Assembly: GCF_900103975.1 (NCBI RefSeq)
Contig: NZ_FNIR01000003.1
Coordinates: forward strand, 62,001-126,000
DNA from: Klenkia soli
GTDB lineage: Bacteria > Actinomycetota > Actinomycetes > Mycobacteriales > Geodermatophilaceae
Direction: 5' to 3'
DNA: 64,000 nucleotides
Positions 20,961-35,686 of this stretch are shown piece by piece (position 1 is the first letter of the stretch; every line of letters starts with the position of its first letter). Made by a program: the position numbers and the translations under genes. Below the pieces are notes generated by a model. That model saw only the letters and a program-made list of their open reading frames with translations. It had not been told where the DNA came from and ran no database searches.

Positions 20961-21566
20961 TTACCGGCCGACGGCGCCCCCCGTCCGCACCGCCTCCAGC
21001 ACTGCGACGACGTCGCTGGTGACGTCGTCGACGGGGCCCTCGGCGACGACCCGGGTCAGCAATCCCTGCGCCGCGTACCAGTCGGACACGGGCCGCGTCT
21101 GCGTCTCGTAGACGGTCAACCGGTGGCGGACGGTGTCCGGGTCGTCGTCCTCCCGTCGGGACGGCCGACCGTCGACGAGCACGACCCGGGTGGACAGCCT
21201 GCGCACCAGTTCCTGGGTGTCGACGAGGAGCTCGACCACGCTGGTGAGGGCCAGGTCGGTCTTGGCCAGGAGCGCCCGGAGCTGCTCGGCCTGGGGGACG
21301 GTGCGCGGGAAGCCGTCGAGCACGAACCCGTCGCCGGCGTCGGGCGAGGCCAGCCTGTCGCGGACCATGGCCACGGTGAGCTCGTCCGGCACCAGGTCGC
21401 CCGCGTCCACGCACGCCCGGGCACGGCGACCGAGCTCGGTGCCACCGCTGACGTGGTCCCTGAACACGTCGCCGGTGGAGATCGCCGGCACGCCGAGGTG
21501 GCGGGCAACGACCTGGGCCTGGGTGCCCTTGCCGGCACCAGGGGGACCGAGCAGCACGACCCGCAT
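20961..21566 (-). CDS. adk: Adenylate kinase, short-LID type, last gene of the carboxylation operon
   Basis: A 201-residue adenylate kinase interconverting AMP, ATP and ADP. The P-loop is 'GPPGAGKGTQ', the AMP-binding region 'AISTGDVFRDHV' and 'FVLDGFPRTVPQAEQL', and the LID region 'GRPSRREDDDPDTVRHRL' is short. Housekeeping adk normally sits in the ribosomal-protein cluster beside secY and map, so this copy is an extra one. It overlaps the aldehyde dehydrogenase stop (ATGA) and ends a 13-gene operon that includes two enzymes expected to release AMP. I infer an AMP-recycling role for the pathway. Confidence 0.9.
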   Translation of the reverse strand: MRVVLLGPPGAGKGTQAQVVARHLGVPAISTGDVFRDHVSGGTELGRRARACVDAGDLVPDELTVAMVRDRLASPDAGDGFVLDGFPRTVPQAEQLRALLAKTDLALTSVVELLVDTQELVRRLSTRVVLVDGRPSRREDDDPDTVRHRLTVYETQTRPVSDWYAAQGLLTRVVAEGPVDDVTSDVVAVLEAVRTGGAVGR

Positions 21567-23062
21567 CAGGTGGACACCTCGTCGAGTCGCCGGTGGACGG
21601 ACTTGTAGGTCACGTACTGCGCCAGCCCTTCGATGCCGTACTCGACGCCGAGGCCGGAGTCGTGCCGTCCGCCGAAGGGGGCCGCGTGGTTGGAGGCGAA
21701 GAAGTTGATGCCGACGGACCCGGAATCGATGCGCTCGGCGACCGACTGCGCAACGGCGGAGTCGCGGCCGAACACGATGCCGCCGAGGCCGAAGTCGCTG
21801 TCGTTGGCCAGGGCGACCGCCTCGTCGACGTCGCCGTAGCGCAGCACCGTCACCACCGGCCCGAACACCTCCTCGCGGGCGATCGCCATGGTGGGGGTGA
21901 CGTCGGCCAGCACGGTCGGCTGGACGAACCACCCTGGGACGCCCTCGACCGGAGCGCCGCCGAGGACCACCCGGGCGCCGTCGGCGCGGGCGCGGTCCAG
22001 GTGTGCCAGGACCGCGTCGAACTGGGCCCTCGAGGCCATCGGCCCGAAGACGGTGTCCTCGTCGAGCGGGTCGCCCTGCGGGGCGGCGGCGACCGTGCGG
22101 GCAACCATGTCGACCACCTCGTCGTAGCGCTCCGCGGGGGCCAGGATGCGGGTGGAGATGTAGCAGGTCTGCCCGGTGTTGCGCAGGCAGCTGCGGATCA
22201 GCACGCCCGCGACGGCGTCCAGGTCGGCGTCGGGCAGGACGACCGCTGCGGACTTGCCGCCCAGTTCCAGGGTCACCGGACGCAGCAGTTCGCCGCAGGT
22301 CGCGGCAATGCGTCGGCCGACGGGGGTCGAGCCGGTGAAGGCGACCTTCGCCGTCCGCGGATGGCGCACGAGGTGGTCGCCCGCCTCCCCGCCGCCGGTG
22401 ACCAGGTTGACCACCCCGGGCGGGGCTCCCGCGGCTGCGAGGGCCTCGACCACGAACCGGATCGACAGCGAGGTGCTCGGTGCCGGCTTGAGCACCGCGG
22501 TGCAGCCCGCGAGCAGTGCCGGGGCCAGCTTGACGACCATGAGGTTGATCGGGAAGTTCCACGGCGCGATGAGCACGCAGGGCCCGACCGGGTCGCGGCG
22601 GACGACGGTCTCCGCTCCGCCGGCGGGGAAGGGCCGCACGTCGTCCTGGGCGAGCCAGGGTGCGAGACCGGCGACGTGCCGCAGGATGCCGGCGGCGTTG
22701 GCCGCCGCGCCGCGGGTCTCGCTGATGGGCGACCCGTTCTCCCGCGTGGTCGTCAGCGCGAGCTGCTCGGCGGACGCCTCGAGGTGGTCGGCGGCCCGGC
22801 GAAGCAGCTCGGCCCGCTGGGCGGGGGTGGTGGCCGGCCACGGCCCGGAGGTGAAGGCCCGGTGGGCGGCCTGCAGCGCGGTGTCGACGTCCGCCGGCGA
22901 GCAGTCCGGTGCCGAGCCCCAGTGCTCCCCGGTGGCGGGGTCGACCTGCGGGAGCCGGGCCGACGAGCTGGACGGCACCCAGCGCCCGTCGACGTACAGG
23001 TCGTCGACGTGGGTCCACCGGGTGGCGGGGCGGGTGCGGGCAGGGGTCCGGGCAAGGGTCAT
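21566..23062 (-). CDS. NAD(P)-dependent aldehyde dehydrogenase
   Basis: A 498-residue aldehyde dehydrogenase. Glu266 lies in 'LELGGK' and the nucleophile Cys300 in 'NTGQTC'; 'PWNFPINL' and 'FTGSTPVGR' mark the coenzyme domain. It would oxidise an aldehyde to a carboxylate. The ATG at 23062 overlaps the ferredoxin reductase stop by four bases. In this operon it probably handles an aldehyde formed after ring or side-chain oxidation; the exact substrate cannot be read from the sequence. Confidence 0.9.
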   Translation of the reverse strand: MTLARTPARTRPATRWTHVDDLYVDGRWVPSSSSARLPQVDPATGEHWGSAPDCSPADVDTALQAAHRAFTSGPWPATTPAQRAELLRRAADHLEASAEQLALTTTRENGSPISETRGAAANAAGILRHVAGLAPWLAQDDVRPFPAGGAETVVRRDPVGPCVLIAPWNFPINLMVVKLAPALLAGCTAVLKPAPSTSLSIRFVVEALAAAGAPPGVVNLVTGGGEAGDHLVRHPRTAKVAFTGSTPVGRRIAATCGELLRPVTLELGGKSAAVVLPDADLDAVAGVLIRSCLRNTGQTCYISTRILAPAERYDEVVDMVARTVAAAPQGDPLDEDTVFGPMASRAQFDAVLAHLDRARADGARVVLGGAPVEGVPGWFVQPTVLADVTPTMAIAREEVFGPVVTVLRYGDVDEAVALANDSDFGLGGIVFGRDSAVAQSVAERIDSGSVGINFFASNHAAPFGGRHDSGLGVEYGIEGLAQYVTYKSVHRRLDEVST

Positions 23063-24327
23063 CGCGCGGTGCCGACCGGGACGGGCGCCGGCTGGGTGAC
23101 GGCCTTGAGCTGCACGGCCGGGTCCGCGGCCGCCACGAACGGGATGGCCAGGCCCTTGGAGAGGGCGGCCTTGACCGCGAGGAAGTCCAGCGGGGAGTTG
23201 ATGCAGTCAGCGGCGAGCAGCCGCTCGCCGCGGTAGTAGAGGACCGACTGCTTCCCCTTGCCCGCGTCGCGGCGCACCAGCGTGCGGTCGTGCCCGGTCG
23301 ACAGCCCGGCGATCTGCAGCTTGACGGCTCCCTGGTTGGACCAGAACCAGGGGATGCCGGCGTACTCCTCCCGGCGGCCGGTGATCGCGTAGGCGGCGAC
23401 CTTGGCCTGCTCGATGGCGTTGTTGACGCTCTCGAAGCGCACCCGGTCGCCGGGTGGTGCCCCCGGCATGGGGTTGGGCTGGTTGGCGCAGTCCCCGATG
23501 GCCATGGTGTGCCCGTCGGAGGCCACCGCCGTCTCGTCGACGAGGACGCCGTCGGCGCAGTTGAGCCCGATCGACTCGGCCAACCCGGTGTTGGGCACGA
23601 CGCCGACGCCGACGAGCACCAGGTCGGCGGGCAGCACCCGGCCGTCGGCGAGCTCGACGCCGCCGACGTGGTCACTGCGTGCGGTGATGCGACGGACCGA
23701 GGTCCCCAGCAGGACCTCGATGCCGGTGGACCGGTGGTGCTCCAGCAGGTGGGCCGAGGTCTGCTCACCGACCGCACGCGCGACGAGCCGGGGAGCGGCC
23801 TCCACCAGGGTCACCGAGCGGCCCAGGGTGGTCAGCGACGCGGCGGCCTCGATGCCGATGAAGCCGCCGCCGATGACCACGACGTCGCGCACGTCGGGCA
23901 GCCGGGCCTTGAGCTCGAGCGCGTCGTCGGCGTTGCGGAGGTACAGCACGCCGGGCAGGTCGGTGCCCTCCATGACCAGCCGGCGGGGGCGGGCCCCGAC
24001 GGCGAGGGCGAGCCGGTCGAAGGCGAACTGCGCGCCGGACATCGAGTGCGCGACTCCGGAACCGTCGTCGGCCTTGTCGACCCGGATGACCCGTTCGCCC
24101 TTCACCAGGTCGATGCCGTGCTCGGGCCAGTAGGAGTCGCTGCGGAACAGCAGCGACTCCGAGGTCACCGTGCCCTGCAGCCACTCCTTGGACAGCGCCG
24201 GGCGCTGGTAGGGCCGGTGCCGCTCGTCGCCGAGCAGGGTGATCGGCCCCTCGTGGCCGAGGGCGCGCAGCGAGGTCGCCAGCGACACCCCGGCCTGCGA
24301 GGAGCCGACGACGAGCAGACCGCTCAC
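23059..24327 (-). CDS. Ferredoxin reductase (putidaredoxin-reductase-like)
   Basis: A 422-residue NAD(P)H/FAD reductase of the Pyr_redox_2 type with a reductase C-terminal domain. It has an FAD motif near the start ('LVVGSSQAGVSLATSLR'), 'RPYQRPALSKEWLQG', an NADH motif 'VVVIGGGFIGIEAA', and the second FAD motif 'AIGDCANQPN'. It transfers electrons from NADH to the ferredoxin encoded just upstream, and so to the P450 at 39974-41221. The GTG at 24327 lies a few bases after the ferredoxin stop. Confidence 0.9.
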   Translation of the reverse strand: MSGLLVVGSSQAGVSLATSLRALGHEGPITLLGDERHRPYQRPALSKEWLQGTVTSESLLFRSDSYWPEHGIDLVKGERVIRVDKADDGSGVAHSMSGAQFAFDRLALAVGARPRRLVMEGTDLPGVLYLRNADDALELKARLPDVRDVVVIGGGFIGIEAAASLTTLGRSVTLVEAAPRLVARAVGEQTSAHLLEHHRSTGIEVLLGTSVRRITARSDHVGGVELADGRVLPADLVLVGVGVVPNTGLAESIGLNCADGVLVDETAVASDGHTMAIGDCANQPNPMPGAPPGDRVRFESVNNAIEQAKVAAYAITGRREEYAGIPWFWSNQGAVKLQIAGLSTGHDRTLVRRDAGKGKQSVLYYRGERLLAADCINSPLDFLAVKAALSKGLAIPFVAAADPAVQLKAVTQPAPVPVGTAR

Positions 24328-24331
24328 CGGG

Positions 24332-24652
24332 TCAGACCTGCGTGGCGGGTGTCGTGACGTGCAGGTCCTGGCCGTCGACGACCCGGATCTGGCAGGACAG
24401 CCGGGAGGTGTCCTCCCGGTCCACGGCGGTGCCGTAGAGCATCTCGTCCTCCATGTCCGACACCGGGGGCAACGTCGCGAGGTCCTCCTCGTCGACGAAC
24501 ACGTGGCAGGTGGCGCAGGACAACGACCCGCCGCACTCGGCGACGATGCCGGGGACCCCGTTGCGCACGGCGGTCTCCATGACGGAGTCGCCCGGGGTGG
24601 CCTGGACGTCGCGGGTCTGGCCGTCGGCGTCGGTGTAGGTGATCGTGGGCAC
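24332..24652 (-). CDS. [2Fe-2S] ferredoxin (adrenodoxin/putidaredoxin type)
   Basis: A 106-residue ferredoxin with three cluster cysteines in 'CGGSLSCATCHVFV' and the fourth in 'RLSCQI', the spacing of vertebrate-type P450 ferredoxins. The tail 'GTAVDREDTSRLSCQIRV' resembles rhodocoxin/terpredoxin. It would shuttle electrons from the neighbouring reductase to the P450. It starts at the GTG at 24652, ten bases after the SDR stop. Confidence 0.92.
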   Translation of the reverse strand: MPTITYTDADGQTRDVQATPGDSVMETAVRNGVPGIVAECGGSLSCATCHVFVDEEDLATLPPVSDMEDEMLYGTAVDREDTSRLSCQIRVVDGQDLHVTTPATQV

Positions 24653-24662
24653 GGGTGCCTCC

Positions 24663-25427
24663 TCAGATGAACTGGCGGCCGCCGTCGACGACGACGGTCT
24701 GGCCGGTGATGAAGCCGGCGTCGGGGCCGGCGAGGAACAGGGCGGCGCCGACGACGTCCTCGGGCTGGCTGGCGCGCCGGAGCGCACCGCGGGACACCCC
24801 GTAGGTCTCGGCGTCGGGCATCACCGAGAGGCTGGCCTCGGTGAGGGTGAACCCGGGCGCGATGGCGTTGACCGTGATGGACCGGCGGCCCAGCTCCTTG
24901 GCCATCACCCGGGTCAGGGCGATGACGCCGCCCTTGGAGGCGACGTAGTGCGCCCACTGCTCCGAGCCGCTGTAGACCGTCGCCGAGGCCAGGTTGACCA
25001 CCCGGCCGCCCTCGGGCAGGTGCGGGCTCAACGCCCGCACCATCAGCCAGGGGCCCTTGAGGTTGACCGCCATGACCCGGTCCCACTCGTCGGGGTCGAT
25101 CTCCTCGACCGGGGCGCGGCGCAGGGTGGCGTAGACGGCGGCGTTGTTGACCAGGACGTCGACCACCCCGCCGCCGAAGTCGGCCACCGCGGCCGCCACC
25201 TCGGCGGCCGAGGCGGGGTCGGTGACGTCCAGCCGGCCGTGCCAGGCCGCCGCGCCGCGCCCGCGGACCAGGTCGGCGGTCTCGGCCACGCCCTCGGCCT
25301 GCACGTCGGCCACCGCGACCCGGTAGCCGCGGTCGGCGAAGCCGAGCGCGAAGGCCCGGCCGAGCCCGCCGGCCGCGCCGGTCACGAGGACCGTGCGGCC
25401 GGCGGCCCCGGTGTCGGGGGAGCTCAC
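24663..25427 (-). CDS. Short-chain dehydrogenase/reductase
   Basis: A 254-residue classical SDR. The cofactor motif is 'TGAAGGLG' (residues 16-23), Asp41 ('AVADVQ') suggests NAD specificity, 'NNAA' is at 94-97, and the catalytic triad is Ser148, Tyr161 and Lys165. It would oxidise a secondary alcohol to a ketone or do the reverse. In the inferred pathway it converts the P450-derived alcohol into the ketone that is later activated and carboxylated. GTG start at 25427, immediately after the phosphohistidine-subunit gene. Confidence 0.9.
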   Translation of the reverse strand: MSSPDTGAAGRTVLVTGAAGGLGRAFALGFADRGYRVAVADVQAEGVAETADLVRGRGAAAWHGRLDVTDPASAAEVAAAVADFGGGVVDVLVNNAAVYATLRRAPVEEIDPDEWDRVMAVNLKGPWLMVRALSPHLPEGGRVVNLASATVYSGSEQWAHYVASKGGVIALTRVMAKELGRRSITVNAIAPGFTLTEASLSVMPDAETYGVSRGALRRASQPEDVVGAALFLAGPDAGFITGQTVVVDGGRQFI

Positions 25428-25431
25428 CCGG

Positions 25432-27291
25432 TCAGCCCTCCAGGATCTCGACGCGGCCGGTGCCGCCGTCGACGCGCAGGAGCTGCCCGGTGCGGATCGT
25501 CGTCGTCCCGCTGCCGGTGCCGGTGACGGCGGGCAGGCCGTACTCCCGGCAGACGATCGCCGCGTGGCTCATCATCCCGCCGATGTCGGTGACCGCCGCG
25601 CCGATCTTGCCGAAGATCGGTCCCCAGGACGGCGCGGTGATCGTCGCGACGAGGATCTCGCCCTCCTCCACCTCGCCGAGCTGATCGGCGCGGTGCACCA
25701 CCCGCGCCCGGCCCTCGGCGACGCCGGGGGAGGCGGCCATGCCGGTGATGCCGCCGCTGGCGTCCTCGTCGCCGGCCAGCCACTGCTGCACCTGCTCGGT
25801 GGTGATGCCCCACAGCATCTGGGTGAAGGGCTCGGTGATCTCGGCGGGCGGGGTGTTCAGCGCCGGGGCCGGGCGCTGGGTCTCAAGCGCGTCGAAGATC
25901 ACCCGGCGGCGCTCGATCTCCGCCGGCCAGTAGTGCGGGCCGGTCGAGCGGACGCCGACGGCCCAGCCGCTGATCAGGTCGAACAGCGCCTCGCGGACCT
26001 CCCCGCGGTCCAGGTAGAGCATGTCGGCGTTCTCCGCCCAGAACCCGGCCTGCACGAACAGGTCCGACAGCTCGCGGGTCTTGCGCCAGAAGACGCCCAT
26101 CGTCCAGTGCTCGATGTAGAAGTTGTGGTTCTCGACGTAGGGGTAGGCGGTGGCGGCCAGACCGCGCTTGGCGTCGAAGGTGGCCAGCTCGTCGCCGTCG
26201 AGCAGCTCGCGGTACTCCTCGACGATGCGCTCCTTCTCCGCCACCAGGGCGTCGACGGGCCGCATGATCTCCTGCCCGTCCTCGACGCGCCGGATGTAGT
26301 CGGCGACGTAGCCCAGCGGGATGTCCAGGTGCTCGCTCCAGTACTTGTCGTGACCGTAGAACCCGTTGCCGACGGTGAAGTTGAACCACGGGTCCTGGGC
26401 GGCGGTCCACGCGTCCAGCCACTCCTCGCCGCGCGGGAGGGCCGCGACCGCGGACAGGGTGCCCTCGACGTCGGCGGTGTCGGCGAAGGCGGCCTGCAGG
26501 CCGAGCTCCACGGCCAGCAGCGAGAGCTTCTTGAGCTCGTCGTCGGGCCGGAACAGCTCCATGTCCACGCCCTGCACCATCCGGGCGATCGCCAGGTCGG
26601 GGATGCCGGGGAAGACCTGCTTGGCGTAGGTGAAGAAGTCCAGGTAGGCCAGGTAGCCCAGGTTGAGGAACTCGAAGTGGTACTGCCAGTTCTGGTAGCA
26701 CAGCTGGATCAGCCGGTCGAAGTTCGCGATCAGCACCTCGGACCCGTCCAGGCCCTTGCCCGAGTGGATGTCGGCCAGCGGCACCATGTCCGGCAGCGCG
26801 GGGAACGACAGCCCCTCCATCTCGTCGATCGTGTCGCGCACCTTGACCCGCCACTCGTCGAGCAGGCTGTCCCAGTTCTGGAAGTAGTGGCCGACGCGCT
26901 GCTCGAACTCCGGCACCCGGCCCGGGATCTCCTCAGGCGGCACCGGGACCGGGCTCATGTAGAGGTAGCCCAGGTGGATCTTGTAGTCGATGCCGTTGGC
27001 CGGCGGGATGAGCAGGTGCCGGGTGTTGTACTGGCTCAACGTCTTGCAGGCGAACTCCGCGCCGATCGTCTCGTAGGGCTTGAACGCCGTGGGCCAGTGC
27101 TGGCTGTCGCAGAACCAGAACCGCTCGTCGCTGTCGGGCGTGTTGGCAAACAGCAGGTTGTACGGGAACAGCGCGTCCCAGCCCTCGGCGCCCTCGGGGA
27201 CGGTGAGCTCCGACGGGCTGGGGAAGGACTTCAGCGCCGGGGCGGCGGCGGGCTCGGCGGCCGCGGAGGGGGTGGGCTCGGTGACGGTCAT
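25432..27291 (-). CDS. Phosphohistidine subunit of a split PEP-synthase-like enzyme (phenylphosphate-synthase alpha-like)
   Basis: A 619-residue protein ending in the mobile phosphohistidine domain of PEP-utilising enzymes ('DIGGMMSHAAIVCREYGLPA', catalytic His576). The first 500 residues are rich in Trp/Tyr/Phe and unlike the PEP/pyruvate barrel; no such barrel is present. This is the layout of the 70-kDa subunit of phenylphosphate synthase, which transfers a phosphate from phosphohistidine to a hydroxyl or enol substrate. The partner ATP-binding subunit is encoded just upstream with a four-base overlap. I infer phosphorylation of an enolisable ketone or alcohol, because a biotin carboxylase and a ketoacid-CoA ligase are co-transcribed; the substrate is not proven. 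Confidence 0.8.
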   Translation of the reverse strand: MTVTEPTPSAAAEPAAAPALKSFPSPSELTVPEGAEGWDALFPYNLLFANTPDSDERFWFCDSQHWPTAFKPYETIGAEFACKTLSQYNTRHLLIPPANGIDYKIHLGYLYMSPVPVPPEEIPGRVPEFEQRVGHYFQNWDSLLDEWRVKVRDTIDEMEGLSFPALPDMVPLADIHSGKGLDGSEVLIANFDRLIQLCYQNWQYHFEFLNLGYLAYLDFFTYAKQVFPGIPDLAIARMVQGVDMELFRPDDELKKLSLLAVELGLQAAFADTADVEGTLSAVAALPRGEEWLDAWTAAQDPWFNFTVGNGFYGHDKYWSEHLDIPLGYVADYIRRVEDGQEIMRPVDALVAEKERIVEEYRELLDGDELATFDAKRGLAATAYPYVENHNFYIEHWTMGVFWRKTRELSDLFVQAGFWAENADMLYLDRGEVREALFDLISGWAVGVRSTGPHYWPAEIERRRVIFDALETQRPAPALNTPPAEITEPFTQMLWGITTEQVQQWLAGDEDASGGITGMAASPGVAEGRARVVHRADQLGEVEEGEILVATITAPSWGPIFGKIGAAVTDIGGMMSHAAIVCREYGLPAVTGTGSGTTTIRTGQLLRVDGGTGRVEILEG

Positions 27292-28385: not shown

Positions 28386-28396
28386 GGGTGTTCTCC

Positions 28397-29293
28397 TCAT
28401 TCGCCGTTGACGAGGTCGAGCAGGGTGAGCGCGTTGTCCTTGAGGACGCCGGGCAGGACCGATTCCTTGACGCCGAGGGTGCGGAAGTCCTCGATCCAGC
28501 GTTCGGGGCTGATCAGCGGGTAGTCGCTGCCGAAGAGCACCTTCTTCCTCAGCTGCCCGCCGATGGCCCGGACCAGCTCGGGCGGGAAGTACTTCGGTGA
28601 CCACCCGGACAGGTCGATGTGCACGTTGGACTTGTGGGTGGCCATGGAGATGGCCTCGCCCTGCCAGGGCACCGACGGGTGCGCCAGGATCACCGTCAGG
28701 TGCGGGAAGTCCGCGGCGACGTCGTCGAGCAGCAGGGGCTGGGAGTAGCGCAGCTTGATGCCGGCACCCCCGGGCAGGCCCGCGCCGATGCCGTTCTGGC
28801 CGGTGTGGAACAGGGCCGGCACCCCGAGGGACTGCAGCTCCTCCCACAGCGGGTAGAAGCGCGTGTCGTCGGGGCTGAAGGCCTGCAGGCTGGGGTGGAA
28901 CTTGAACCCGCGCACCCCCGACTCCAGCACCAGCCGGCGGGCCTGCTCGACGGCGGCGGTCCCGCGGTGGGGGTCCACCGAGCCGAAGGGGATGAGCACG
29001 TCGGCGTGCTCGGCGCACCGGGCGGCGATGTCCTCGCTGGACAGGGCGGGGTGCCCGGTCGCCGTCGCGGCGTCGATGGTGAAGACCACCGCCGCCATGC
29101 CGGCGGCCCGGTACCGGGCGGCCAGGTCTTCGACGGTGGGCACCCGGTTGTCGCTGGACCGGAAGTAGGCCGCCGAGGCGTCCATGAGGTCCTGGGACAG
29201 CGACAGGCAGCCCGCGTCGTCCTGCTCGACGTGCACGTGGACGTCGAGGGCGCTGATGGCGTCCGGATCGATGGCCGGGCGGTAGACGGTCAC
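28397..29293 (-). CDS. Amidohydrolase-2 family metal-dependent hydrolase/decarboxylase
   Basis: A 298-residue TIM-barrel amidohydrolase. 'LDVHVHV' supplies the first metal ligands, 'GFKFHPSLQAF' and 'HTGQNG' the next strands, and 'LFGSDYPLI' the terminal Asp. The family includes ACMSD- and resorcylate-type decarboxylases and C-C or lactone hydrolases. It starts at a GTG in a GTGA overlap with the CoA-ligase gene. Its position between the CoA ligase and the kinase subunits suggests it acts on a carboxylated or ring-cleaved intermediate, but no substrate can be assigned. Confidence 0.82.
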   Translation of the reverse strand: MTVYRPAIDPDAISALDVHVHVEQDDAGCLSLSQDLMDASAAYFRSSDNRVPTVEDLAARYRAAGMAAVVFTIDAATATGHPALSSEDIAARCAEHADVLIPFGSVDPHRGTAAVEQARRLVLESGVRGFKFHPSLQAFSPDDTRFYPLWEELQSLGVPALFHTGQNGIGAGLPGGAGIKLRYSQPLLLDDVAADFPHLTVILAHPSVPWQGEAISMATHKSNVHIDLSGWSPKYFPPELVRAIGGQLRKKVLFGSDYPLISPERWIEDFRTLGVKESVLPGVLKDNALTLLDLVNGE

Positions 29294-31296
29294 CGGGTGC
29301 TGCCTGCGGTCTGCACGGCCAGGGCACGGGCCCGGGCGAGGTCGAGGAAGGGGGTCAGGGCGGTGGCGTCGGCGAGGGCGTCGCGGCTGACGACGCTGTC
29401 GGCCGGCGCGCCCTGCAGGATCCGTTTGACCGGCAGCTCGAGCTTCTTGCCGGTGAGGGTGCGCGGGACGGCGGGCACCACCGTCACCTGATCGGGGACG
29501 TGCCGGGGCGAGAGCGCCGACCGCAGGGCCGAGGTGATGGTGGCGCGCAGCTCCTCGTCCAGGGCCCTGCCGGGGGCGGTGACCACGTAGAGGATCAGCT
29601 CCCCGGTCCCGCCCGCCGGGTCCTCGAGGTGGACGACGAGGGAGTCCTCGACGCCGTCGAGCTCCTCGACCACGCGGTAGAACTCCGCGGTGCCCAGGCG
29701 GACGCCGCCGCGGTTGAGGGTGGCGTCGGAACGGCCGGCGACGGAGCAGCTGCCGTCGGCGTGGAACAGGACCCAGTCGCCGTGGCGCCAGGTGCCGGGG
29801 TAGGTGTCGAAGTAGGTGGCGCGGTACCGGCTGCCGTCCTCGTCGCCCCAGAAGCCGACCGGCATGGAGGGCATGGGCGCGGTGATGACCAGCTCACCGA
29901 GCTCGTCGACCAGCGGCCGCCCGTCGGGATCGAAGGCGTGGGCGTCGACGCCCAGGCAGCGGCCGGAGATCTCCCCGGCCAGGACCGGCAGCAGCGGGTT
30001 GCCCTGCACGATCCCCGAGCAGACATCCGTGCCGCCCGAGCCGACGACGAGGAGCACGTCGGGCCCCAGCTGGTCCAGTAGCCAGACCGAGCCCTCCGGC
30101 GGGAGCGGGGCGCCGGCCGACCCGACCACGCGCACCGCCAGCCGGCCGGCGTCGAGGGTCAGCCCGGCGGCGCGGCAGGCCATCACGAAGCCGGGGCTGG
30201 CACCCATGACGGTGGCCCGGGTCTCCTCCGCCAGCCGCCACTGCCACCCGAGGTCGGGGTGCGTCGGGTTCCCGTCGACCACCACGATCGACGCCCCGAC
30301 CAGGAGCGAGGAGACGAGGGAGTTCCACATCATCCAGGCGGTCGTGGTGAACCACAGCATGCGGTCACCCGGACCCATGTCCCAGGACAGGGCGTGGTTC
30401 TTCAGATGCTCGACCAGGACCCCGCCGTGCCCGTGCACGATGGCCTTGGGTGCGCCGGTGGTGCCCGAGGAGAACAGCACGACGAGCGGGTGGTCGAACG
30501 GGACCGGGGCGAAGTCCGGGGTGGCCCCCTCCTGCTCGGCGAGCAGACCGGGCCACGACAGGGCCGCGGGCACCCGCCAGTCCCCGTACTCGATGTCCAC
30601 GACGTGCCGCACGGTCGGCAGCGCGGCCGCCACCTCGGCGACCTGCTCGGTGCGGGGCACGTCGCGCGCCCCGTACCGGTAGCCCCCGGCGACGAGCAGG
30701 ACGACCGGTTCGACCTGGGCGAGCCGGTCGACCACGCTGCGCGGGCCGAACTCGCTCGCGCAGGCGGCCCAGACCGCCCCCAGGCTGGCCGTGGCCAGGA
30801 ACGCCACCACTGCCTCGGGCACGTTGGGCAGGTAGGCGGCCACCCGGTCACCGGCCCGCACCCCGAGCTGCACCAGCGCGGCCCGCGCCCGCGCGACCTG
30901 GTCGGCCAGCTCGCCCGCGGTGAGGTCGACGTCGGGCCGGGTCTGCGACCGGCCGAGGACGACGGCCCGGTCGGGGTCGGCGTCGTGCCGCAGCGCGTGC
31001 TCCGCGTAGTTGAGCGTCGCGCCGGTGAACCAGCGGGCGCCGGGCATCGACCGGTCGGCGAGCACCTGCTCGTAGGGGTGGTGGGCCCGCACGTCGAAGT
31101 GCTCCCACACGGCGGACCAGAACCCTTCAAGGTCGCCGACCGACCACGCGTGCAGCTCTGCGTGGGTGCCCAGGCGCACCCCGCGGTGCTCGTCCAGCCA
31201 GCGCAGGAACGCGCCCACGCGGCTGCGGTCCAGGACGTCCGTGGGGGGAGTGCGCAGCACCTGGCCGGTGCGGACCGGGGTCGGGTGGGGGCTCAC
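29290..31296 (-). CDS. Acetoacetyl-CoA synthetase (3-ketoacid-CoA ligase)
   Basis: A 668-residue AMP-forming ligase of the acetoacetyl-CoA synthetase type, the family's usual length. 'RWFTGATLNYAEHAL' is the N-terminal AACS signature, 'VLFSSGTTGAPKAIVHGHGG' the phosphate loop, and 'GKKLELPVKRIL' near residue 630 the C-terminal Lys region. It activates a beta-keto acid with ATP and CoA, releasing AMP and pyrophosphate. In the operon it would take the product of ketone carboxylation and prepare it for thiolysis. GTG start at 31296. Confidence 0.9.
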   Translation of the reverse strand: MSPHPTPVRTGQVLRTPPTDVLDRSRVGAFLRWLDEHRGVRLGTHAELHAWSVGDLEGFWSAVWEHFDVRAHHPYEQVLADRSMPGARWFTGATLNYAEHALRHDADPDRAVVLGRSQTRPDVDLTAGELADQVARARAALVQLGVRAGDRVAAYLPNVPEAVVAFLATASLGAVWAACASEFGPRSVVDRLAQVEPVVLLVAGGYRYGARDVPRTEQVAEVAAALPTVRHVVDIEYGDWRVPAALSWPGLLAEQEGATPDFAPVPFDHPLVVLFSSGTTGAPKAIVHGHGGVLVEHLKNHALSWDMGPGDRMLWFTTTAWMMWNSLVSSLLVGASIVVVDGNPTHPDLGWQWRLAEETRATVMGASPGFVMACRAAGLTLDAGRLAVRVVGSAGAPLPPEGSVWLLDQLGPDVLLVVGSGGTDVCSGIVQGNPLLPVLAGEISGRCLGVDAHAFDPDGRPLVDELGELVITAPMPSMPVGFWGDEDGSRYRATYFDTYPGTWRHGDWVLFHADGSCSVAGRSDATLNRGGVRLGTAEFYRVVEELDGVEDSLVVHLEDPAGGTGELILYVVTAPGRALDEELRATITSALRSALSPRHVPDQVTVVPAVPRTLTGKKLELPVKRILQGAPADSVVSRDALADATALTPFLDLARARALAVQTAGSTR

Positions 31297-31297
31297 C

Positions 31298-32245
31298 TCA
31301 CGCCCCCACCCGGTCGGCGGGCAGGGCGGTCGGGGCGTTCACCGGGTCGCTGGCCGTTGCGTCGGCCAGCAGCATGCGGGCGCTGAGCTCGGAGAGCGCG
31401 TCGACGACGAGGTCGGGCATCTGGTCGGCCGCGATCTCGCCGACGGGGACGCGGCCGTGCACGCCGGTGGTCACCAGGACCCCCACGCCACCGGCGCGGC
31501 GGGCCATCGAGACCTCCAGCCGCAGGTCGTCCCCGGCGACCAGGACGTCGGCCGGCGCGACGCCCAAGCGCCGCGCGGCCACGAGCATGGCGGTGTCGGA
31601 GGGCTTGCCGAGCACTTCGTACTCGGTGTCGGTCACGTAGGACAGGCCCTGGGCGATGAACCCGCCGACCCCGGCCATGGGCTTGCTGGCCGAGGCGAAG
31701 CGCCGGGCATCGCTGGCGACCAGCATCGGGGCGCCGTTCCAGATGGCCTCGGCCGCCGCCTGCAACCGGTCACGGGTGAACCCGACGTCCCAGCCGACGA
31801 GCACGGCCGCGGCGTCGGTGGGCCGGTCGGGGTCGGCCAGCACCACCCCGGCGGCCGCGACGACGTCGACCAGGCCCGGGCCGGCGAAGACCAGCACCGG
31901 CTGGTCCCCGTAGCGCTCGGCGAGCACCTCGGCGGCGACCACCGCCGGGGTCAGGACCTCGTCGTCGGCCAGGTCGAAGCCCTGCAGCCGCAGCCCGGCG
32001 GCGATGTCGGCCGGGACCTGGCTGCTGCCGTTGGTGAAGGCCACCACCGGTCGCCCGGTGGCGCGGATGGCGGCGACGGCGTCCACGGCCCCGGGCAGCG
32101 CCCGGCCGCCGTGGCCACCGGGCTTGTCCCCGAGGACGAGGCAGCCGTCGATGTCGAAGACCACCCCGCGCACGGCGCGCAGCCGGTCGGGCAGGTCGGG
32201 CGCTGGGACGTGCCCGTTGCGGTGCTGGTCGGGTGCTGTGGTCAT
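31298..32245 (-). CDS. HAD-IIA family phosphatase (NagD/p-nitrophenylphosphatase-like)
   Basis: A 315-residue HAD hydrolase. Motif I is 'VVFDIDGCLVLGD' (nucleophile Asp), motif II 'VAFTNGSSQV', then the C2a cap, and motif III/IV 'GKPSDTAML ... VAGDDLRLEV'. It would remove phosphate from a small organic phosphate. Inside a kinase/carboxylase operon it could dephosphorylate a phosphorylated intermediate or clear a dead-end enol or acyl phosphate. ATG at 32245 overlaps the carboxyltransferase stop by four bases. Confidence 0.85.
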   Translation of the reverse strand: MTTAPDQHRNGHVPAPDLPDRLRAVRGVVFDIDGCLVLGDKPGGHGGRALPGAVDAVAAIRATGRPVVAFTNGSSQVPADIAAGLRLQGFDLADDEVLTPAVVAAEVLAERYGDQPVLVFAGPGLVDVVAAAGVVLADPDRPTDAAAVLVGWDVGFTRDRLQAAAEAIWNGAPMLVASDARRFASASKPMAGVGGFIAQGLSYVTDTEYEVLGKPSDTAMLVAARRLGVAPADVLVAGDDLRLEVSMARRAGGVGVLVTTGVHGRVPVGEIAADQMPDLVVDALSELSARMLLADATASDPVNAPTALPADRVGA

Positions 32246-33771
32246 CGCGCCTGTCCTCCTCCAGGTGCGCCGCGGCGCAGGCTGATGCGTTCGTGGCCGA
32301 GGGTGATGTCGAGGGAGCGCCAGTGCGGCAGCTCGGACGCCGCCCGGACGAAGTCCAGGCCGGAGGTCACCGGCTGCCGGTCCGGCTGCCAGGCGGGGGC
32401 GGGCCCGGCGGCGGCCATCACGTCGAGCTGGTCGGCGGGCAGCACCGTGCGCAGCAGGACCTCGCGATCGGGGACGTCGTCGCGGCCCAGCTGGCGGGCG
32501 ACCGTGGAGCGCAGCTCGGCCACGGTGGGCTCGGCCTGCGGCCGGTCCAGCTCGCGGGTGCGGGGCAGGTCGGCGGCCCGCTGCGCGACGTCGGGGTCGA
32601 CCGGGCCGGGCGGCGTCCCGAAGTGGCCCAGCAGGTAGCGCAGCACCTCGTCGGGCATCCGCGACCAGCGGTCCTCGCCGTGCTGGGCGGCCAGCACGTT
32701 GAGCACGGCCTGGGTGCCGATGAACTGGCTGTAGGGCGTGACCATGATCGGCCAGCCGAGCGCCTCGCGGACCTGCCCGACCTCCTCGAGCACGTGCGGC
32801 AGGAGGTCGGCCTGGCCGCGCTCGGCCAGCTGCCGGCGCAGCGTGCCCATCATCCCGCCGGGGATCTGGTGCTGCTGGTAGGCCAGGTCGAGCTCGGTGG
32901 GCCGGCCCGGTGGCAGGTCCTGCACCTGCGCGATCCGGTCGACCACCGCGGCGGCGCGACGGAGGGCCGCGGTGTCCACGTCGGTGTCGATGCCGACCGC
33001 GGCCAGGTTGTCGACCAACCGCAGGGCGTCGGGCTGGCTGGTGCCGTTCGCCAGCGCGCCGAGGGCGGTGTGCAGCACGTCCACGCCGTGCTGGGCGGCC
33101 ACCACGTACACCAGCGGCGCGAGCCCGGTGGTGCAGTGGCTGTGCAGCTCCAGCACGCCGTCGCCGACGGCGGCCCGCAGCTCGGGGATGAGCTGAGCGG
33201 TGCGCTCGGGGGTGAGCAGGCCGCCGGGGTCCTTGAGGTACACCCGGTCGATCAGCGGGTCGGCGGCCAGCACCTTCGCGGCGGCGGCGTAGAGGGAGTC
33301 GTCGTGGACGGGTGACACCGTGAAGGTCACCGCGGCGACGACCTGCTCGATGCCCTCCTCCTTGGCCAGCGCGGCCACCGCGAGCGTGGCCGCGGTGTCG
33401 TTCATCGGCTCGGCGATCTGCAGCCGGCGCAGCCCCGCCTCGGCCAGCGCGCGCATCGACATCCGCATCACGCTCACCGGTGAGCGGTCCCAGGACATGA
33501 AGCGCATGCCGGTGGTGATCAGGGACAGCGGGGTGCCGGGGGTGACCGCGGCCATCCGGCTGATCCGCTCCCACGGGTCCTCGCGGTGCCAGCGCACGCC
33601 CACCGACAGGTGGGTGGAGGAGGTGAAGTCCAGCGCGTCCAGGCCGGCGGCCTCCAGGTGCGGGCCGACCGCCTCGACCATGCCGGTGGTCAGGCCGGCG
33701 GCGCCCCACAGCGACTGGTTGCCGTCCCGCAGGCTGGTGTCGAGCAACCGCACCGTGCGTCGGGCGCTCAT
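32242..33771 (-). CDS. Biotin-dependent carboxyltransferase, pyruvate-carboxylase/oxaloacetate-decarboxylase type
   Basis: A 509-residue PYC_OADA/HMGL-like TIM barrel. The metal site is intact: Asp16 in 'SLRDGNQSL', Lys180 in 'YLKDPGGLLTP' (the carbamylated Lys in relatives) and His210/His212 in 'ELHSHCTTGL'; 'VTPYSQFIG' carries the catalytic Thr. By ungapped alignment with pyruvate carboxylase, the Arg that grips the pyruvate carboxylate (in 'LLRASN') falls on Gly88 of 'ITTGMRF'. That suggests an acceptor other than a 2-keto acid, such as a ketone or enol phosphate. It has no fused biotinyl domain; that is supplied by 35147-35686. Confidence 0.88.
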   Translation of the reverse strand: MSARRTVRLLDTSLRDGNQSLWGAAGLTTGMVEAVGPHLEAAGLDALDFTSSTHLSVGVRWHREDPWERISRMAAVTPGTPLSLITTGMRFMSWDRSPVSVMRMSMRALAEAGLRRLQIAEPMNDTAATLAVAALAKEEGIEQVVAAVTFTVSPVHDDSLYAAAAKVLAADPLIDRVYLKDPGGLLTPERTAQLIPELRAAVGDGVLELHSHCTTGLAPLVYVVAAQHGVDVLHTALGALANGTSQPDALRLVDNLAAVGIDTDVDTAALRRAAAVVDRIAQVQDLPPGRPTELDLAYQQHQIPGGMMGTLRRQLAERGQADLLPHVLEEVGQVREALGWPIMVTPYSQFIGTQAVLNVLAAQHGEDRWSRMPDEVLRYLLGHFGTPPGPVDPDVAQRAADLPRTRELDRPQAEPTVAELRSTVARQLGRDDVPDREVLLRTVLPADQLDVMAAAGPAPAWQPDRQPVTSGLDFVRAASELPHWRSLDITLGHERISLRRGAPGGGQAR

Positions 33772-35150
33772 GCCGCACCGACCGCGGTCCGGGCCCCGGC
33801 GACCTCGGGCCACACCCGGTCCAACCACTGGGTGGTGACCCCGCCGCGGCGGACGTCGGGCTGGGCGACCAGCCAGTCCAGGAAGTCCAGCGTGGTGGCG
33901 ATGCCGTCGACCCGGGCGTTGCCGAGCGCGGCGGCCATGGCGTCCAGGGCCGCAGTGCGGTCGTGGGCCCGGACGACGAGCTTGCCCAGCAGGCTGTCGT
34001 AGAAGGGCGGGAAGAGGTACCCGTCGGTGGTGTGGGTGTCGACCCGGATTCCGGGTCCGGCCGGCCAGACCACCGCGGTGATGCGGCCGGGCGAGGGGCG
34101 GAAGCCCACCCACGCGTCCTCGGCGGTGACCCGGCACTCGACCACGTGCCCGTGCGGCTCGGGCAGCGACTCGGGCAGACCGGTGGGAAGGCCCGCGGCG
34201 AGCAGCAGCTGCGCGGCGACCAGGTCGATGCCGAACAGCTCCTCGGTGACCGGGTGCTCGACCTGGATGCGGCCGTTGACCTCGAGGAAGACCACCGTCG
34301 CCGGGTCGGCCCCGGCGCTGTCGTCGACCAAGAACTCCACGGTGCCCGCGCCGGTGTAGCGCAGGTGGCGGGCCAGACGTGCGGCGCTGTCGTGCAGCAG
34401 CGCACGGGTCGCGGGGGACAGCCCCGGCGCCGGGGCCTCCTCCAGCACCTTCTGGTGACGTCGCTGCACGGAGCAGTCCCGGTCCCCGGCGACCAGGACG
34501 CCGCCCTCGCCGTCGCCGAAGACCTGCACCTCGACGTGCCGGGCGTCGGCGTAGTAGCGCTCCAGGTACAGCGCGCCGTCCCCGAACCCGGCGCGGGCCT
34601 CCGCGGCGGCCAGGTCGAAGGTCCGGTCCAGGTCGGCCGGCTCCCGAACGAGGTGGATGCCGCGACCGCCACCGCCGTGCACCGCCTTGAGCAGGGCGGG
34701 GTAGCCGATCCGGTCGGCGGCGGCGTGCGCCGCGGCCAGGTCGGCGACGTCCTCGGCGGGGGACACCGGGACGTCGGCGGCGATGGCCTCCCGGCGGGCG
34801 GAGGACTTGTCCCCGACCGCGCGCAGGGTCTCGGGCCGGGGACCGGCGAACGCGATGCCCTCCTCGGCCAGCAGCTCACCCAGTTCGGGCTTCTCGCTGC
34901 AGAACCCGTAACCGGGGTGCACGACGTCGGCCCCGACGGAGACGGCGGCCTGGGCCAGCAGCTCAGGCCGCAGGTAGGACCGGCCCGGGTCGGCCGGACC
35001 GATGCAGACGGCGCGGTCGGCCAGCCGCGCGGCGAGGCTGTCGCGGTCGGCCGCGCTGACCGCGACGACGACCTCGAAGCCCAGGCGGCGGCAGGCCCGG
35101 ACCACGCGCACAGCGATCTCGCCGCGGTTGGCCACCAGCACGCGGGTCAT
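33768..35150 (-). CDS. Biotin carboxylase subunit
   Basis: A 460-residue ATP-grasp biotin carboxylase that carboxylates biotin with ATP and bicarbonate. 'ANRGEIAVRVVRACRRLG' is the N-terminal signature, 'AVHGGGGRGIHLV' the glycine loop, 'DCSVQRRHQKVLEEAP' and 'FLEVNGRIQVEHPVTE' the active-site strands. The last motif differs slightly from the usual EMNxRxQVEH. It lies between the biotin carrier and carboxyltransferase genes with four-base overlaps at both ends, so the three form one complex. Confidence 0.93.
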   Translation of the reverse strand: MTRVLVANRGEIAVRVVRACRRLGFEVVVAVSAADRDSLAARLADRAVCIGPADPGRSYLRPELLAQAAVSVGADVVHPGYGFCSEKPELGELLAEEGIAFAGPRPETLRAVGDKSSARREAIAADVPVSPAEDVADLAAAHAAADRIGYPALLKAVHGGGGRGIHLVREPADLDRTFDLAAAEARAGFGDGALYLERYYADARHVEVQVFGDGEGGVLVAGDRDCSVQRRHQKVLEEAPAPGLSPATRALLHDSAARLARHLRYTGAGTVEFLVDDSAGADPATVVFLEVNGRIQVEHPVTEELFGIDLVAAQLLLAAGLPTGLPESLPEPHGHVVECRVTAEDAWVGFRPSPGRITAVVWPAGPGIRVDTHTTDGYLFPPFYDSLLGKLVVRAHDRTAALDAMAAALGNARVDGIATTLDFLDWLVAQPDVRRGGVTTQWLDRVWPEVAGARTAVGAA

Positions 35151-35686
35151 GCCGGCTCCACCCGCAGCAGCACCGCGCCGTGCTCGACCATGGACCCCTC
35201 GACCACGCAGACCTCGGCGACCCGGCCGGCGACCCCGGCGGACACGTTGGTCATGAGCTTCATGACCTCGAGGACCGCGACGGTGGTGTCGGCCTGCACG
35301 GTGTCGCCGACCGCGACGAAGGGCGCGGCGTCCGGCGCGGGGCGCAGGTAGGCGACGCCCAGCATGGGCGCGGTGACCTCGACCAGGTGCGAGGTGTCGG
35401 CGGGGGCCGGGACGGCGGCGACCGGGCCGACGGCGGCCGGAGCGGCGGCCGCGGGGGCGGCAGCGGGAGCGGGGTCCGCCGCGGGTGCCACGGGTGCGGC
35501 CGGGGCCGGGGTGGGGGCGCCCGGCGCGGTCGGCAGCGCCGTGCGCGACACCCGGACGGTGACGCCGTCCAGGGTGATCTCGGCGTCGGCGAACCCTGAC
35601 CCGTCCAGGCGGGTGACCAGCTCCAGGACGTCCTCCCAGCAGACCTGCTGGGTCGTGCCGGACGTCGGTCCGTTGTCCCTGCTCAC
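35147..35686 (-). CDS. Biotin carboxyl carrier protein, first gene of the 13-gene operon
   Basis: A 179-residue AccB-like carrier. Residues 1-50 match the AccB N-terminal region, then a flexible Ala/Pro linker of about 45 residues, then a biotinyl domain with 'VLEVMKLMTNV' and the biotin-accepting Lys143. It carries carboxybiotin between the carboxylase and carboxyltransferase encoded downstream. It is the promoter-proximal gene of the minus-strand operon running to 20961, divergent from an IclR gene 106 bp away. Confidence 0.92.
   Translation of the reverse strand: MSRDNGPTSGTTQQVCWEDVLELVTRLDGSGFADAEITLDGVTVRVSRTALPTAPGAPTPAPAAPVAPAADPAPAAAPAAAAPAAVGPVAAVPAPADTSHLVEVTAPMLGVAYLRPAPDAAPFVAVGDTVQADTTVAVLEVMKLMTNVSAGVAGRVAEVCVVEGSMVEHGAVLLRVEPA

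What the first reader, a model, noticed from the sequence alone, without database searches (positions are those of the whole stretch)
20961..35686. A 13-gene operon that looks like a new biotin-dependent ketone phosphorylation-carboxylation pathway
Seen: one strand, mostly four-base overlaps, encoding biotin carrier, biotin carboxylase, PYC-type carboxyltransferase, HAD phosphatase, acetoacetyl-CoA synthetase, amidohydrolase, split PEP-synthase-like kinase, SDR, ferredoxin, ferredoxin reductase, aldehyde dehydrogenase and adenylate kinase. Known: phenylphosphate synthase uses a split PEP-synthase-like pair to phosphorylate phenol; the AcxABC acetone carboxylase makes an enol phosphate before carboxylation but uses no biotin; AACS activates beta-keto acids. 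Inference: a ketone (acetone, an alkyl ketone or a cyclic/terpenoid ketone) is phosphorylated to its enol phosphate, carboxylated by the biotin enzyme to a beta-keto acid and made into a CoA ester. I know of no characterised system with this exact combination.
Basis: partly seen in the sequence, partly recalled or inferred. Interest (0 to 1): 0.87.

Follow-up and report, generated by a model that had tools for sequence, protein, structure and literature searches.

The report
Merged cresol-type and acetophenone-type phosphate pathway operon
An actinobacterium carries one operon that joins two known ways of breaking down phenolic compounds, both of which begin by attaching a phosphate to the phenol, and it probably lets the cell oxidise, carboxylate and cleave lignin-type alkylphenols while the phosphate stays on.

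Summary
The operon is real: 13 genes, 7 of 12 junctions with four-base overlaps. Its core is not new. Biotin carrier, biotin carboxylase, carboxyltransferase, HAD phosphatase, AACS-type ligase, amidohydrolase and split PEP-synthase-like kinase are the gene set of the Hpe pathway, published in 2022 for acetovanillone and 4-hydroxyacetophenone. There the phosphate goes on the phenolic OH, not on an enol. The other genes are not part of published hpe operons. SDR, ferredoxin, ferredoxin reductase and ALDH, with a divergent P450, match the p-cresol (cre) operon in order. The kinase pair is cre-type by tree (100/100 for the H subunit) and lacks the Cys before the catalytic His seen in all 21 hpe-type rows; the carboxyltransferase is hpe-type. 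I found no second two-component aryl kinase in the genome, and no HD phosphatase at the creD position. My reading: a merged Cre–Hpe operon in which one phosphorylation serves P450 oxidation of a p-alkylphenol such as 4-ethylphenol to its ketone, then carboxylation and cleavage to 4-hydroxybenzoate plus acetyl-CoA. One-kinase mergers occur in three other lineages I examined. Module identity is well supported; the linear ethylphenol flow is inferred. My literature searches found no description of the merger.

The parts
35147..35686 (-). biotin carboxyl carrier protein (Hpe cassette)
   Evidence: PF00364 2.4e-17; biotin site LEVMKLM; EVMKLM is the commonest form, 52 of the 81 loci examined
33768..35150 (-). 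biotin carboxylase (Hpe cassette)
   Evidence: 56-72% to its counterparts in L041-L067
32242..33771 (-). carboxyltransferase of phospho-aryl-ketone type
   Evidence: 75% to Nocardioides sp. CFH 31398, 59% to Actinomadura macra, whose pathway was tested; tree; residue comparison
31298..32245 (-). HAD-IIA phosphatase, HpeD-like
   Evidence: PF13344/PF13242; 51-53% to the counterparts in L044, L066, L162
29290..31296 (-). acetoacetate-CoA-ligase-family synthetase, HpeE role
   Evidence: TIGR01217 732 bits, over cut-off; only 42-43% to the counterparts in L066 and L162
28397..29293 (-). amidohydrolase-2 family, HpeF/CouO role
   Evidence: PF04909 4.9e-47; 61% to the last gene of the hpe operons L066 and L162
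27288..28400 (-). aryl kinase ATP-grasp subunit, CreI-type
   Evidence: PPDK_N 6e-108; 66-67% to Rhodococcus plasmid cre operons; tree
25432..27291 (-). aryl kinase swivel/substrate subunit, CreH-type (TDIGGMMSHA)
   Evidence: 79% to Rhodococcus plasmid cre operons; tree 100/100; motif
24663..25427 (-). SDR dehydrogenase, CreG position
   Evidence: 75-76% to SDR of Rhodococcus cre operons
24332..24652 (-). 2Fe-2S ferredoxin, CreF/CreE position
   Evidence: Fer2; 74%
23059..24327 (-). ferredoxin reductase, CreE/CreF position
   Evidence: 66-67%
21566..23062 (-). aldehyde dehydrogenase, CreC position
   Evidence: 71-72%
20961..21566 (-). second adenylate kinase, proposed AMP recycling
   Evidence: PF00406; another adk lies elsewhere between genes that read as secY and map by eye; no adk match in the 102 relatives' loci searched
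35793..36557 (+). IclR regulator, divergent from the operon (106-base gap)
   Evidence: PF01614; IclR genes recur beside hpe cassettes
36576..38264 (-). FAD oxidoreductase, CrtI/CrtO-like, role unknown
   Evidence: 86/77/64% in L041, L042, L063, and in no other of the 102 loci searched
38265..39113 (+). HD-domain protein of the IclR/P450-linked type, not the creD-position type (exact start not settled)
   Evidence: PF01966; HD tree
39100..39915 (+). IclR regulator of cre type
   Evidence: an IclR gene precedes the P450 in cre operons
39875..41221 (+). cytochrome P450, CreJ-type (true start probably 39974)
   Evidence: best PDB hits 5xjn/7ccf/5gwe E~1e-147, next family 5e-70; 54% identity over 407 aligned columns; 57-58% to the P450 of Rhodococcus cre operons

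Best explanation
A merged Cre–Hpe operon for phenols with a para side chain. Proposed flow: (1) the CreHI-type dikinase phosphorylates the phenolic OH of a p-alkylphenol (4-ethylphenol as the model), ATP to AMP + Pi. (2) The CreJ-type P450, fed by the operon's reductase and ferredoxin, hydroxylates the benzylic carbon of the aryl phosphate. (3) The SDR oxidises the alcohol to 4-acetylphenyl phosphate. (4) The biotin carboxylase complex carboxylates its methyl group to the phospho-aryl beta-keto acid. (5) The HAD phosphatase removes the phosphate. (6) The AACS-type ligase makes the CoA ester, ATP to AMP. (7) The amidohydrolase-family enzyme splits it into 4-hydroxybenzoate and acetyl-CoA; a PobA-like enzyme and PcaGH elsewhere in the genome continue. 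The ALDH gives a p-cresol branch, and the extra adenylate kinase recycles the AMP of steps 1 and 6. Shown here: gene identity, module membership, a single two-component aryl kinase, presence of pobA/pcaGH-like genes. Known from homologues: chemistry of steps 1 (on cresol and hydroxyphenyl ketones), 4 and 5. Inferred: steps 2-3 in this order on the phosphate ester, steps 6-7 here, the ADK role, and the substrate.
For: The C-A-B-D-E-F order of canonical hpe operons (Rhodococcus JS3073 plasmid L162; A. macra L066, whose first six genes converted AV/HAP in RHA1, PMC13101465) is followed directly by I-H-SDR-Fdx-FdR-ALDH of cre operons (L160, L161; same order as creI-H-G-F-E-(D)-C in C. glutamicum, PMC7764795 table). 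Both kinase subunits fall in the cre clade (H 100/100; I 100/99); the carboxyltransferase is in the hpe clade, sister to Nocardioides (93/90). Motif. One H subunit over the family cut-off; the three weaker genome hits are two PEP synthases and a PTS enzyme I. One-kinase mergers also in Microbacterium sp. BR1 and Aurantimicrobium minutum (cre-type only) and, reciprocally, Nocardioides sp. CFH 31398 (hpe-type only, with CreJ-type P450, SDR, Fdx, FdR, ALDH). In Arthrobacter sp. C2 a whole cre operon lies between hpeE and hpeF (L060 with L135). Hpe-type CT and cre-type H co-occur in 15 of 398 genomes of one family (18 with CT, 28 with H; Fisher 5e-17). creD-position HD: present in 13 of 13 loci where the FdR-ALDH interval was seen, absent in the window and the Nocardioides stretches. 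HpeCBA takes only the phosphorylated ketone (PMC9618137). PobA-like and pcaGH-like genes present.
Against: No experiment. CreG is listed as an NAD-dependent 4-hydroxybenzyl alcohol dehydrogenase (PMC7764795 table), so the SDR may need the free phenol; then the ketone would have to be re-phosphorylated. The ALDH is not needed for 4-ethylphenol. BR1 and A. minutum keep the creD-position HD, so its loss is not general. The FAD oxidoreductase has no place in the scheme. The co-occurrence counts are not phylogenetically independent. Ser before the catalytic His is not peculiar to cre kinases: 13 of 17 rows in neither group have it too; only the Cys is peculiar to hpe. Sequences of GD02 HpeHI/HpeCBA and C. 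glutamicum CreHI were compared only through relatives. A single-component kinase such as MarK (PMC13101465) was not searched for in the genome.
Confidence: 0.6

Rival explanations
1. Two pathways side by side that merely share one kinase and regulation: p-cresol through the Cre cassette (P450, SDR, ALDH) and 4-hydroxyacetophenone/acetovanillone through the Hpe cassette, with no flow from alkylphenol to ketone.
For: ALDH is retained and fits p-cresol; HpeHI itself accepts cresol at about a quarter of its rate on 4-hydroxyacetophenone, so one kinase can serve both (PMC12167813). BR1 and A. minutum keep complete cre operons.
Against: One co-directional operon with the modules fused end to end; no creD-position HD here; a 71% SDR next to an hpe cassette in Virgisporangium, whose genome gave no P450 match at E <= 1e-60, suggests an alcohol-to-ketone role.
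Confidence: 0.27
2. The same merged logic but another natural substrate: 4-ethylguaiacol or a longer p-alkylphenol/guaiacol, giving vanillate or propionyl-CoA instead.
For: A GcoA-type guaiacol O-demethylase P450 with a reductase lies in the window and two VanA_C matches over the cut-off exist in the genome, so guaiacyl substrates are plausible.
Against: In GD02 the carboxylase prefers 4-phosphoacetophenone about tenfold over the methoxylated ketone (PMC9618137).
Confidence: 0.08
3. One reading: an aliphatic, cyclic or terpenoid ketone is phosphorylated on its enol and then carboxylated.
For: Gene families allow a ketone kinase followed by a biotin carboxylase.
Against: The characterised close homologues phosphorylate a phenolic OH (PMC9618137, PMC12167813; cre per PMC7764795); kinase, P450 and neighbours belong to aromatic pathways.
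Confidence: 0.03
4. An anaplerotic pyruvate carboxylase/PEP-synthase operon.
For: NCBIfam hits of carboxylase and kinase proteins to PYC/OadA and PEP synthase models.
Against: Those hits are below the curated cut-offs; pyruvate-site loop replaced; a separate pyruvate carboxylase-type ORF (open frame 1206 aa) and two PEP synthase genes lie elsewhere.
Confidence: 0.02

Closest known systems
Hpe pathway (hpeHICBADEF, Rhodococcus rhodochrous GD02; also A. macra) and Acv pathway of Sphingobium SYK-6
   Same: Same eight kinds of gene as GD02: split dikinase, three-part biotin carboxylase, HAD phosphatase, CoA ligase, amidohydrolase-type hydrolase; carrier-BC-CT-D-E-F order as in L162 and L066; carboxyltransferase in the same clade
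   Different: Kinase here is not the HpeHI type and sits after F instead of before the carrier; SDR, ferredoxin, reductase, ALDH, adenylate kinase and a divergent P450 are added
Cre pathway for p-cresol (creJIHGFEDC, Corynebacterium glutamicum; Rhodococcus plasmids)
   Same: I-H-SDR-Fdx-FdR-ALDH in the same order, CreJ-type P450, HD-IclR-P450 order as on the R. ruber plasmid (L161), kinase in the same clade with the same motif
   Different: No HD phosphatase at the creD position; P450 split off to the divergent strand; a biotin carboxylase cassette precedes the kinase in the same operon
Xcc carboxylase of Aromatoleum aromaticum EbN1 (as told in PMC9618137)
   Same: Homologous biotin carboxylase in anaerobic ethylphenol/4-hydroxyacetophenone degradation, clustered with kinase homologues
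   Different: Anaerobic; no P450/cre module is described there in what I read
Phenylphosphate synthase (PpsAB) of Thauera/Aromatoleum
   Same: Split PEP-synthase-like dikinase acting on a phenolic OH (PMC12167813)
   Different: Followed by a carboxylase not homologous to HpeCBA (PMC9618137)

Membership tests
Hpe pathway | Biotin carboxylase complex with a carboxyltransferase of the Hpe clade, not PYC/OadA | tested here: met
   Tree: 27-row clade 100/100 with A. macra and R. JS3073; 34 near-fixed differences from 22 PYC/OAD-type sequences, 74 near-fixed identities incl. R15, D16, Q19, K180, H210, H212
Hpe pathway | HpeD, HpeE, HpeF equivalents in the operon | tested here: met
   Order CT-D-E-F shared with L162 and L066
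Hpe pathway | HpeHI-type kinase (Cys before catalytic His) ahead of the carrier gene | tested here: not met
   Kinase is in the cre clade with Ser-His and is the only PRK08296-type H in the genome over the cut-off
Hpe pathway | Activity: carboxylation of phosphorylated, not free, hydroxyphenyl ketone | not testable with these tools
   Enzyme assay needed
Cre pathway | CreHI-type kinase | tested here: met
   Trees; motif identical to 14 of 14 cre-type rows. One of 14 control genomes passes the H family cut-off; C. glutamicum is on the list of genomes that ring, and I infer it is that one. CreHI itself was not aligned
Cre pathway | CreJ-type P450 with ferredoxin and reductase | tested here: met
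   (that 5xjn/5gwe/7ccf are CreJ is recalled)
Cre pathway | CreG SDR and CreC ALDH in the operon | tested here: met
   75-76% and 71-72% to Rhodococcus cre operons
Cre pathway | CreD-position HD phosphohydrolase between reductase and ALDH | tested here: not met
   FdR and ALDH overlap by 4 bases; the window HD is of the other HD clade. Rest of the genome not searched for it
Pyruvate carboxylase / OadA | Pyruvate-site loop (EVWGGATFD) and family score | tested here: not met
   Loop is DFTSSTHLS; NCBIfam scores below cut-offs

The most novel reading that the evidence does not exclude
A new aerobic route for p-alkylphenols in which one phosphoryl group, put on at the start, stays through P450 oxidation, dehydrogenation and biotin-dependent carboxylation and is removed only by the HAD phosphatase, so that kinase, monooxygenase and carboxylase form one phosphate-tagged line with its own adenylate kinase for AMP; this line arose several times by fusion of cre and hpe modules with loss of one of the two kinases.
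Probability: 0.5. Interest if true: 0.75.

Novelty: new variant of a known kind. Interest (0 to 1): 0.58.

Why it matters
Authors of the Hpe work write that the reason for the costly phosphorylation is unclear (PMC9618137 Discussion; PMC12167813 passage). A merged operon in which an oxygenase and a carboxylase may act on the same phosphate ester suggests a handle logic: one tag recognised by successive enzymes. It makes that question directly testable and offers a compact gene set for converting lignin-derived 4-ethylphenol or 4-ethylguaiacol, for which the aerobic Rhodococcus route I saw described runs by meta-cleavage (PMC13101518 passage).

Tried and rejected
Enol-phosphate or aliphatic ketone carboxylation: rejected, see rivals. 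Pyruvate carboxylase: rejected. Structure prediction of the FAD oxidoreductase from four sequences gave mean pLDDT 40; no fold search was made with it, and its role stays unknown. PDB sequence search with the HD protein gave nothing. My first FAD oxidoreductase coordinates lacked about 26 residues at the N-terminus; the extended version carries one residue ahead of the likely start. In the phylum sample no kinase besides the window's own exceeded 56% identity to it, so the cre/hpe co-occurrence test was made in the family of Microbacterium sp. BR1. There I counted as cre-type any H match of 59% or more, three of the 28 genomes (G401, G408, G535) by fragments only; the search scores at most three candidates a genome. 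Of 14 loci checked for an I gene, 11 have an H match but no I match, two have both and one has neither; I use seven of the 11. Of the other four, L054's H is a fragment at the contig end, and L076, L084 and L091 were not in the kinase search. For the genome searches I gave 31 of the 80 loci. Papers on CreJ and p-cresol phosphorylation (PMC4813557 and two by DOI) are not held; what I say of CreJ structures from them is recalled.

Rows dropped before counts: from the CT tree and residue comparison L054 (308 residues), from the I tree L055 (a 4-residue ORF), from the HD tree L136 (a 15-residue ORF); none from the H tree. The CT tree warned of long branches meeting outside the window's own group.
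Full report
Observation. The 13 open reading frames lie where stated, all on the minus strand from 35686 down to 20961. Of the 12 junctions, seven are 4-base overlaps, one is a 1-base overlap and four are gaps of 1 to 10 bases. Families were confirmed by Pfam and NCBIfam. The second kinase gene belongs to PRK08296.1-2 (1089 bits, cut-off 650). The window lies in a 4.76 Mb genome in 25 contigs.

What the core is. There HpeHI phosphorylates the phenolic OH of 4-hydroxyacetophenone and acetovanillone, HpeCBA carboxylates the phosphorylated but not the free ketone, HpeD removes the phosphate, and HpeE/HpeF are proposed to make the CoA ester and cleave off acetyl-CoA. The first six genes of the Actinomadura macra operon, my locus L066, converted the same ketones in RHA1 (PMC13101465: abstract, passages and first part of the Discussion).

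The carboxyltransferase. A genome scan with an alignment of relatives found 323 confirmed places, of which the best 80 were kept. The nearest are Nocardioides sp. CFH 31398 (75%), Virgisporangium ochraceum (72%), a Frankia MAG (68%) and Sphaerisporangium perillae (67%); A. macra has 59%. In a tree of 34 rows the window is sister to Nocardioides (93/90) inside a 27-row clade (100/100) with A. macra and the Rhodococcus sp. JS3073 plasmid operon. Against 22 pyruvate carboxylase/oxaloacetate decarboxylase-type sequences, 34 Hpe-type sequences agree at 74 near-fixed positions, including R15, D16, Q19, K180, H210 and H212, and differ at 34 (one residue in at least 90% of the one set, another in at least 85% of the other); the majority loop EVWGGATFD becomes DFTSSTHLS. 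That K180 is the carbamylated lysine, H210/H212 are metal ligands and the loop lines the pyruvate site is recalled. The genome's own pyruvate carboxylase-type ORF is elsewhere and 27% identical.

What the tail is. I, H, SDR, ferredoxin, ferredoxin reductase and ALDH follow each other in the same order in two Rhodococcus plasmid operons, L160 and L161, with 66-79% identity; their P450, which in the window is placed on the other strand, has 57-58%. This is the order of creJ-I-H-G-F-E-D-C in C. glutamicum, where a table names CreHI 4-methylbenzyl phosphate synthase subunits, CreG an NAD-dependent 4-hydroxybenzyl alcohol dehydrogenase, CreC a benzaldehyde dehydrogenase, CreD a phosphohydrolase and CreE/F/J class I P450 system subunits (PMC7764795, passages). 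The P450 at 39875-41221 hits PDB 5xjn, 7ccf and 5gwe at about 1e-147, the next family at 5e-70, with 54% identity over 407 aligned columns. That these entries are CreJ, partly with ethylphenol phosphates bound, is recalled; those papers are not held.

Two histories in one operon. Trees of both kinase subunits place the window inside the cre clade (H: 15 rows, 100/100, next to the Rhodococcus plasmids; I: 15 rows, 100/99), apart from the 21 hpe-type H rows (100/100). A second marker agrees: PMC12167813 (abstract and passages) reports Cys before the catalytic His in HpeH and Ser in CreH and phenylphosphate synthase. I find SDIGGIMCHA in 21 of 21 hpe-type rows and TDIGGMMSHA in 14 of 14 cre-type rows and in the window. 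Ser alone is not peculiar to cre: it stands in 13 of the 17 rows that belong to neither group (3 have Ala, 1 no motif). The genome has one H subunit over the family cut-off; the three weaker hits are two PEP synthases, each cut by a contig end, and a PTS enzyme I-type protein.

Other mergers. I searched the genomes behind 31 of the 80 loci. Of these 31, 30 have an H subunit at E <= 1e-60; 14 have a cre-type one (59-71%, two of them in fragments), and all 14 of these have a CreJ-type P450 (51% or more), as do 3 of the other 17. Microbacterium sp. BR1 and two Aurantimicrobium minutum strains have only the cre-type kinase, at the same locus as the carboxylase cassette; Nocardioides sp. CFH 31398 has only the hpe-type kinase but a P450-SDR-Fdx-FdR set and an ALDH at the same locus. 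In Arthrobacter sp. C2 hpe H-I-C-A-B-D-E is followed on the same strand by a whole cre operon and then by hpeF (L060 read on into L135). In seven loci the hpe-type H stands next to the biotin carrier without a detectable I; six of those seven genomes have a cre-type H, and the cre operons I fetched from four of them (L139-L142) have an I. In 398 genomes of the family of BR1, 18 have an Hpe-type carboxyltransferase, 28 a cre-type H, 15 both (Fisher 5e-17; relatedness not corrected); five of the 18 (G417, G418, G419, G438, G777) showed only a cre-type H, and three (G403, G567, G803) no cre-type H. In a phylum sample of 396, 7 have the carboxyltransferase at 47% or more, 22 a kinase H of any type, 6 both.

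Phosphate kept on. Cre operons have two kinds of HD gene, which form two clades (SH-aLRT 100 each): one near IclR/P450 or between H and SDR, one between reductase and ALDH, the creD position. The latter was present in 13 of 13 loci where that interval was seen, and absent from the window and from the Nocardioides stretches I hold. The window's HD protein is of the first kind. This fits a scheme in which the phosphate must survive until the carboxylase has acted, but BR1 and A. minutum keep the creD-position gene, and I could not search the rest of the window's genome for it.

Fit of the pieces. HpeCBA prefers 4-phosphoacetophenone about tenfold over the acetovanillone phosphate (PMC9618137), and that is what oxidation of 4-ethylphenyl phosphate would give. 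HpeHI accepts cresol at about a quarter of its rate on 4-hydroxyacetophenone (PMC12167813), so one kinase serving both modules is plausible. The predicted product can probably be used: a PobA-like gene (475 bits, below the curated cut-off of 539), pcaH (over cut-off) and a pcaG-like neighbour lie together on contig C22. An SDR 71% identical to the window's stands by the hpe cassette of Virgisporangium, whose genome gave no P450 match at E <= 1e-60. The operon's adenylate kinase is a second copy; another lies between genes that read as secY and map. Dikinase and CoA ligase both make AMP (general knowledge of these families), so recycling is a natural guess.

Weak points. The linear route from alkylphenol to ketone is inferred; two pathways sharing a kinase remains a real alternative. 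GD02 and C. glutamicum kinase sequences were not compared directly. Single-component kinases such as MarK were not searched for. PMC9618137's table calls HpeB the carboxyltransferase and HpeA the biotin carboxylase, but its masses (49.3 kDa for HpeB, 57.4 for HpeA) and the gene order in L162 suggest the reverse; I therefore use BC and CT.

Novelty. Searches for ethylphenol with CreJ (none), for ethylphenol, hydroxyacetophenone, phosphorylation, carboxylation and P450 (three papers), for ethylphenol, cresol, phosphate synthase, acetophenone and Actinobacteria (four papers) and for CreHI, HpeHI, ethylphenol and phosphorylated intermediate (three papers) showed no listing or passage that describes a cre–hpe merger. 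The library is open-access only, and the supplement of PMC9618137, which shows clusters with various combinations of hpe homologues, was not in reach. I rate it a new variant of a known kind.

Noticed in passing
window 49393-55369: A guaiacol O-demethylase pair: P450 53054-54286 hits GcoA structures (5ncb, 3e-236) and 52035-53102 is a Fer2-FAD-NAD reductase, with intradiol dioxygenase 50786-51682, MLE-type gene 49393-50667 and an AraC regulator 54431-55369. The window looks like a lignin-aromatics island.
   Followed up: partly
window 57389-63993: HpaB-type hydroxylase 62200-63993 with a second intradiol dioxygenase 61171-62082, a second MLE-type gene 59974-61095, a SnoaL-like protein and an alpha/beta hydrolase.
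   Followed up: no
window 36576-38264: CrtI/CrtO-like FAD oxidoreductase found in Nocardioides, Virgisporangium and Microbacterium BR1 hpe loci and in no other of 102 loci searched; no function proposed.
   Followed up: partly
L046, L047, L049, L050, L056, L057, L058: An hpe-type kinase H subunit adjoins the biotin carrier with no detectable ATP-grasp (I) subunit in the locus; it may borrow the I subunit of the cre kinase.
   Followed up: partly
L060 and L135 (Arthrobacter sp. C2): A whole cre operon lies between hpeE and hpeF on the same strand, and the genome has a second cre operon (L134).
   Followed up: partly
L160, L161: Complete cre operons on Rhodococcus plasmids (one typed conjugative) beside toluene-monooxygenase-type genes; in L161 IS1380 transposases lie nearby.
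   Followed up: no
plasmid hits H15-H18: Carboxyltransferase relatives (42%) on plasmids of Sphingobium yanoikuyae, Sphingomonas bisphenolicum and Pseudomonas putida; bisphenol A breakdown yields 4-hydroxyacetophenone (recalled), which such a carboxylase could use.
   Followed up: no
window 43775-44848 and 55780-57147: Two rve-type transposase/integrase genes lie either side of the guaiacol gene region.
   Followed up: no
window 17897-19651 and 19765-20457: A PucR-type regulator and a TetR regulator sit just beyond the 3' end of the operon.
   Followed up: no
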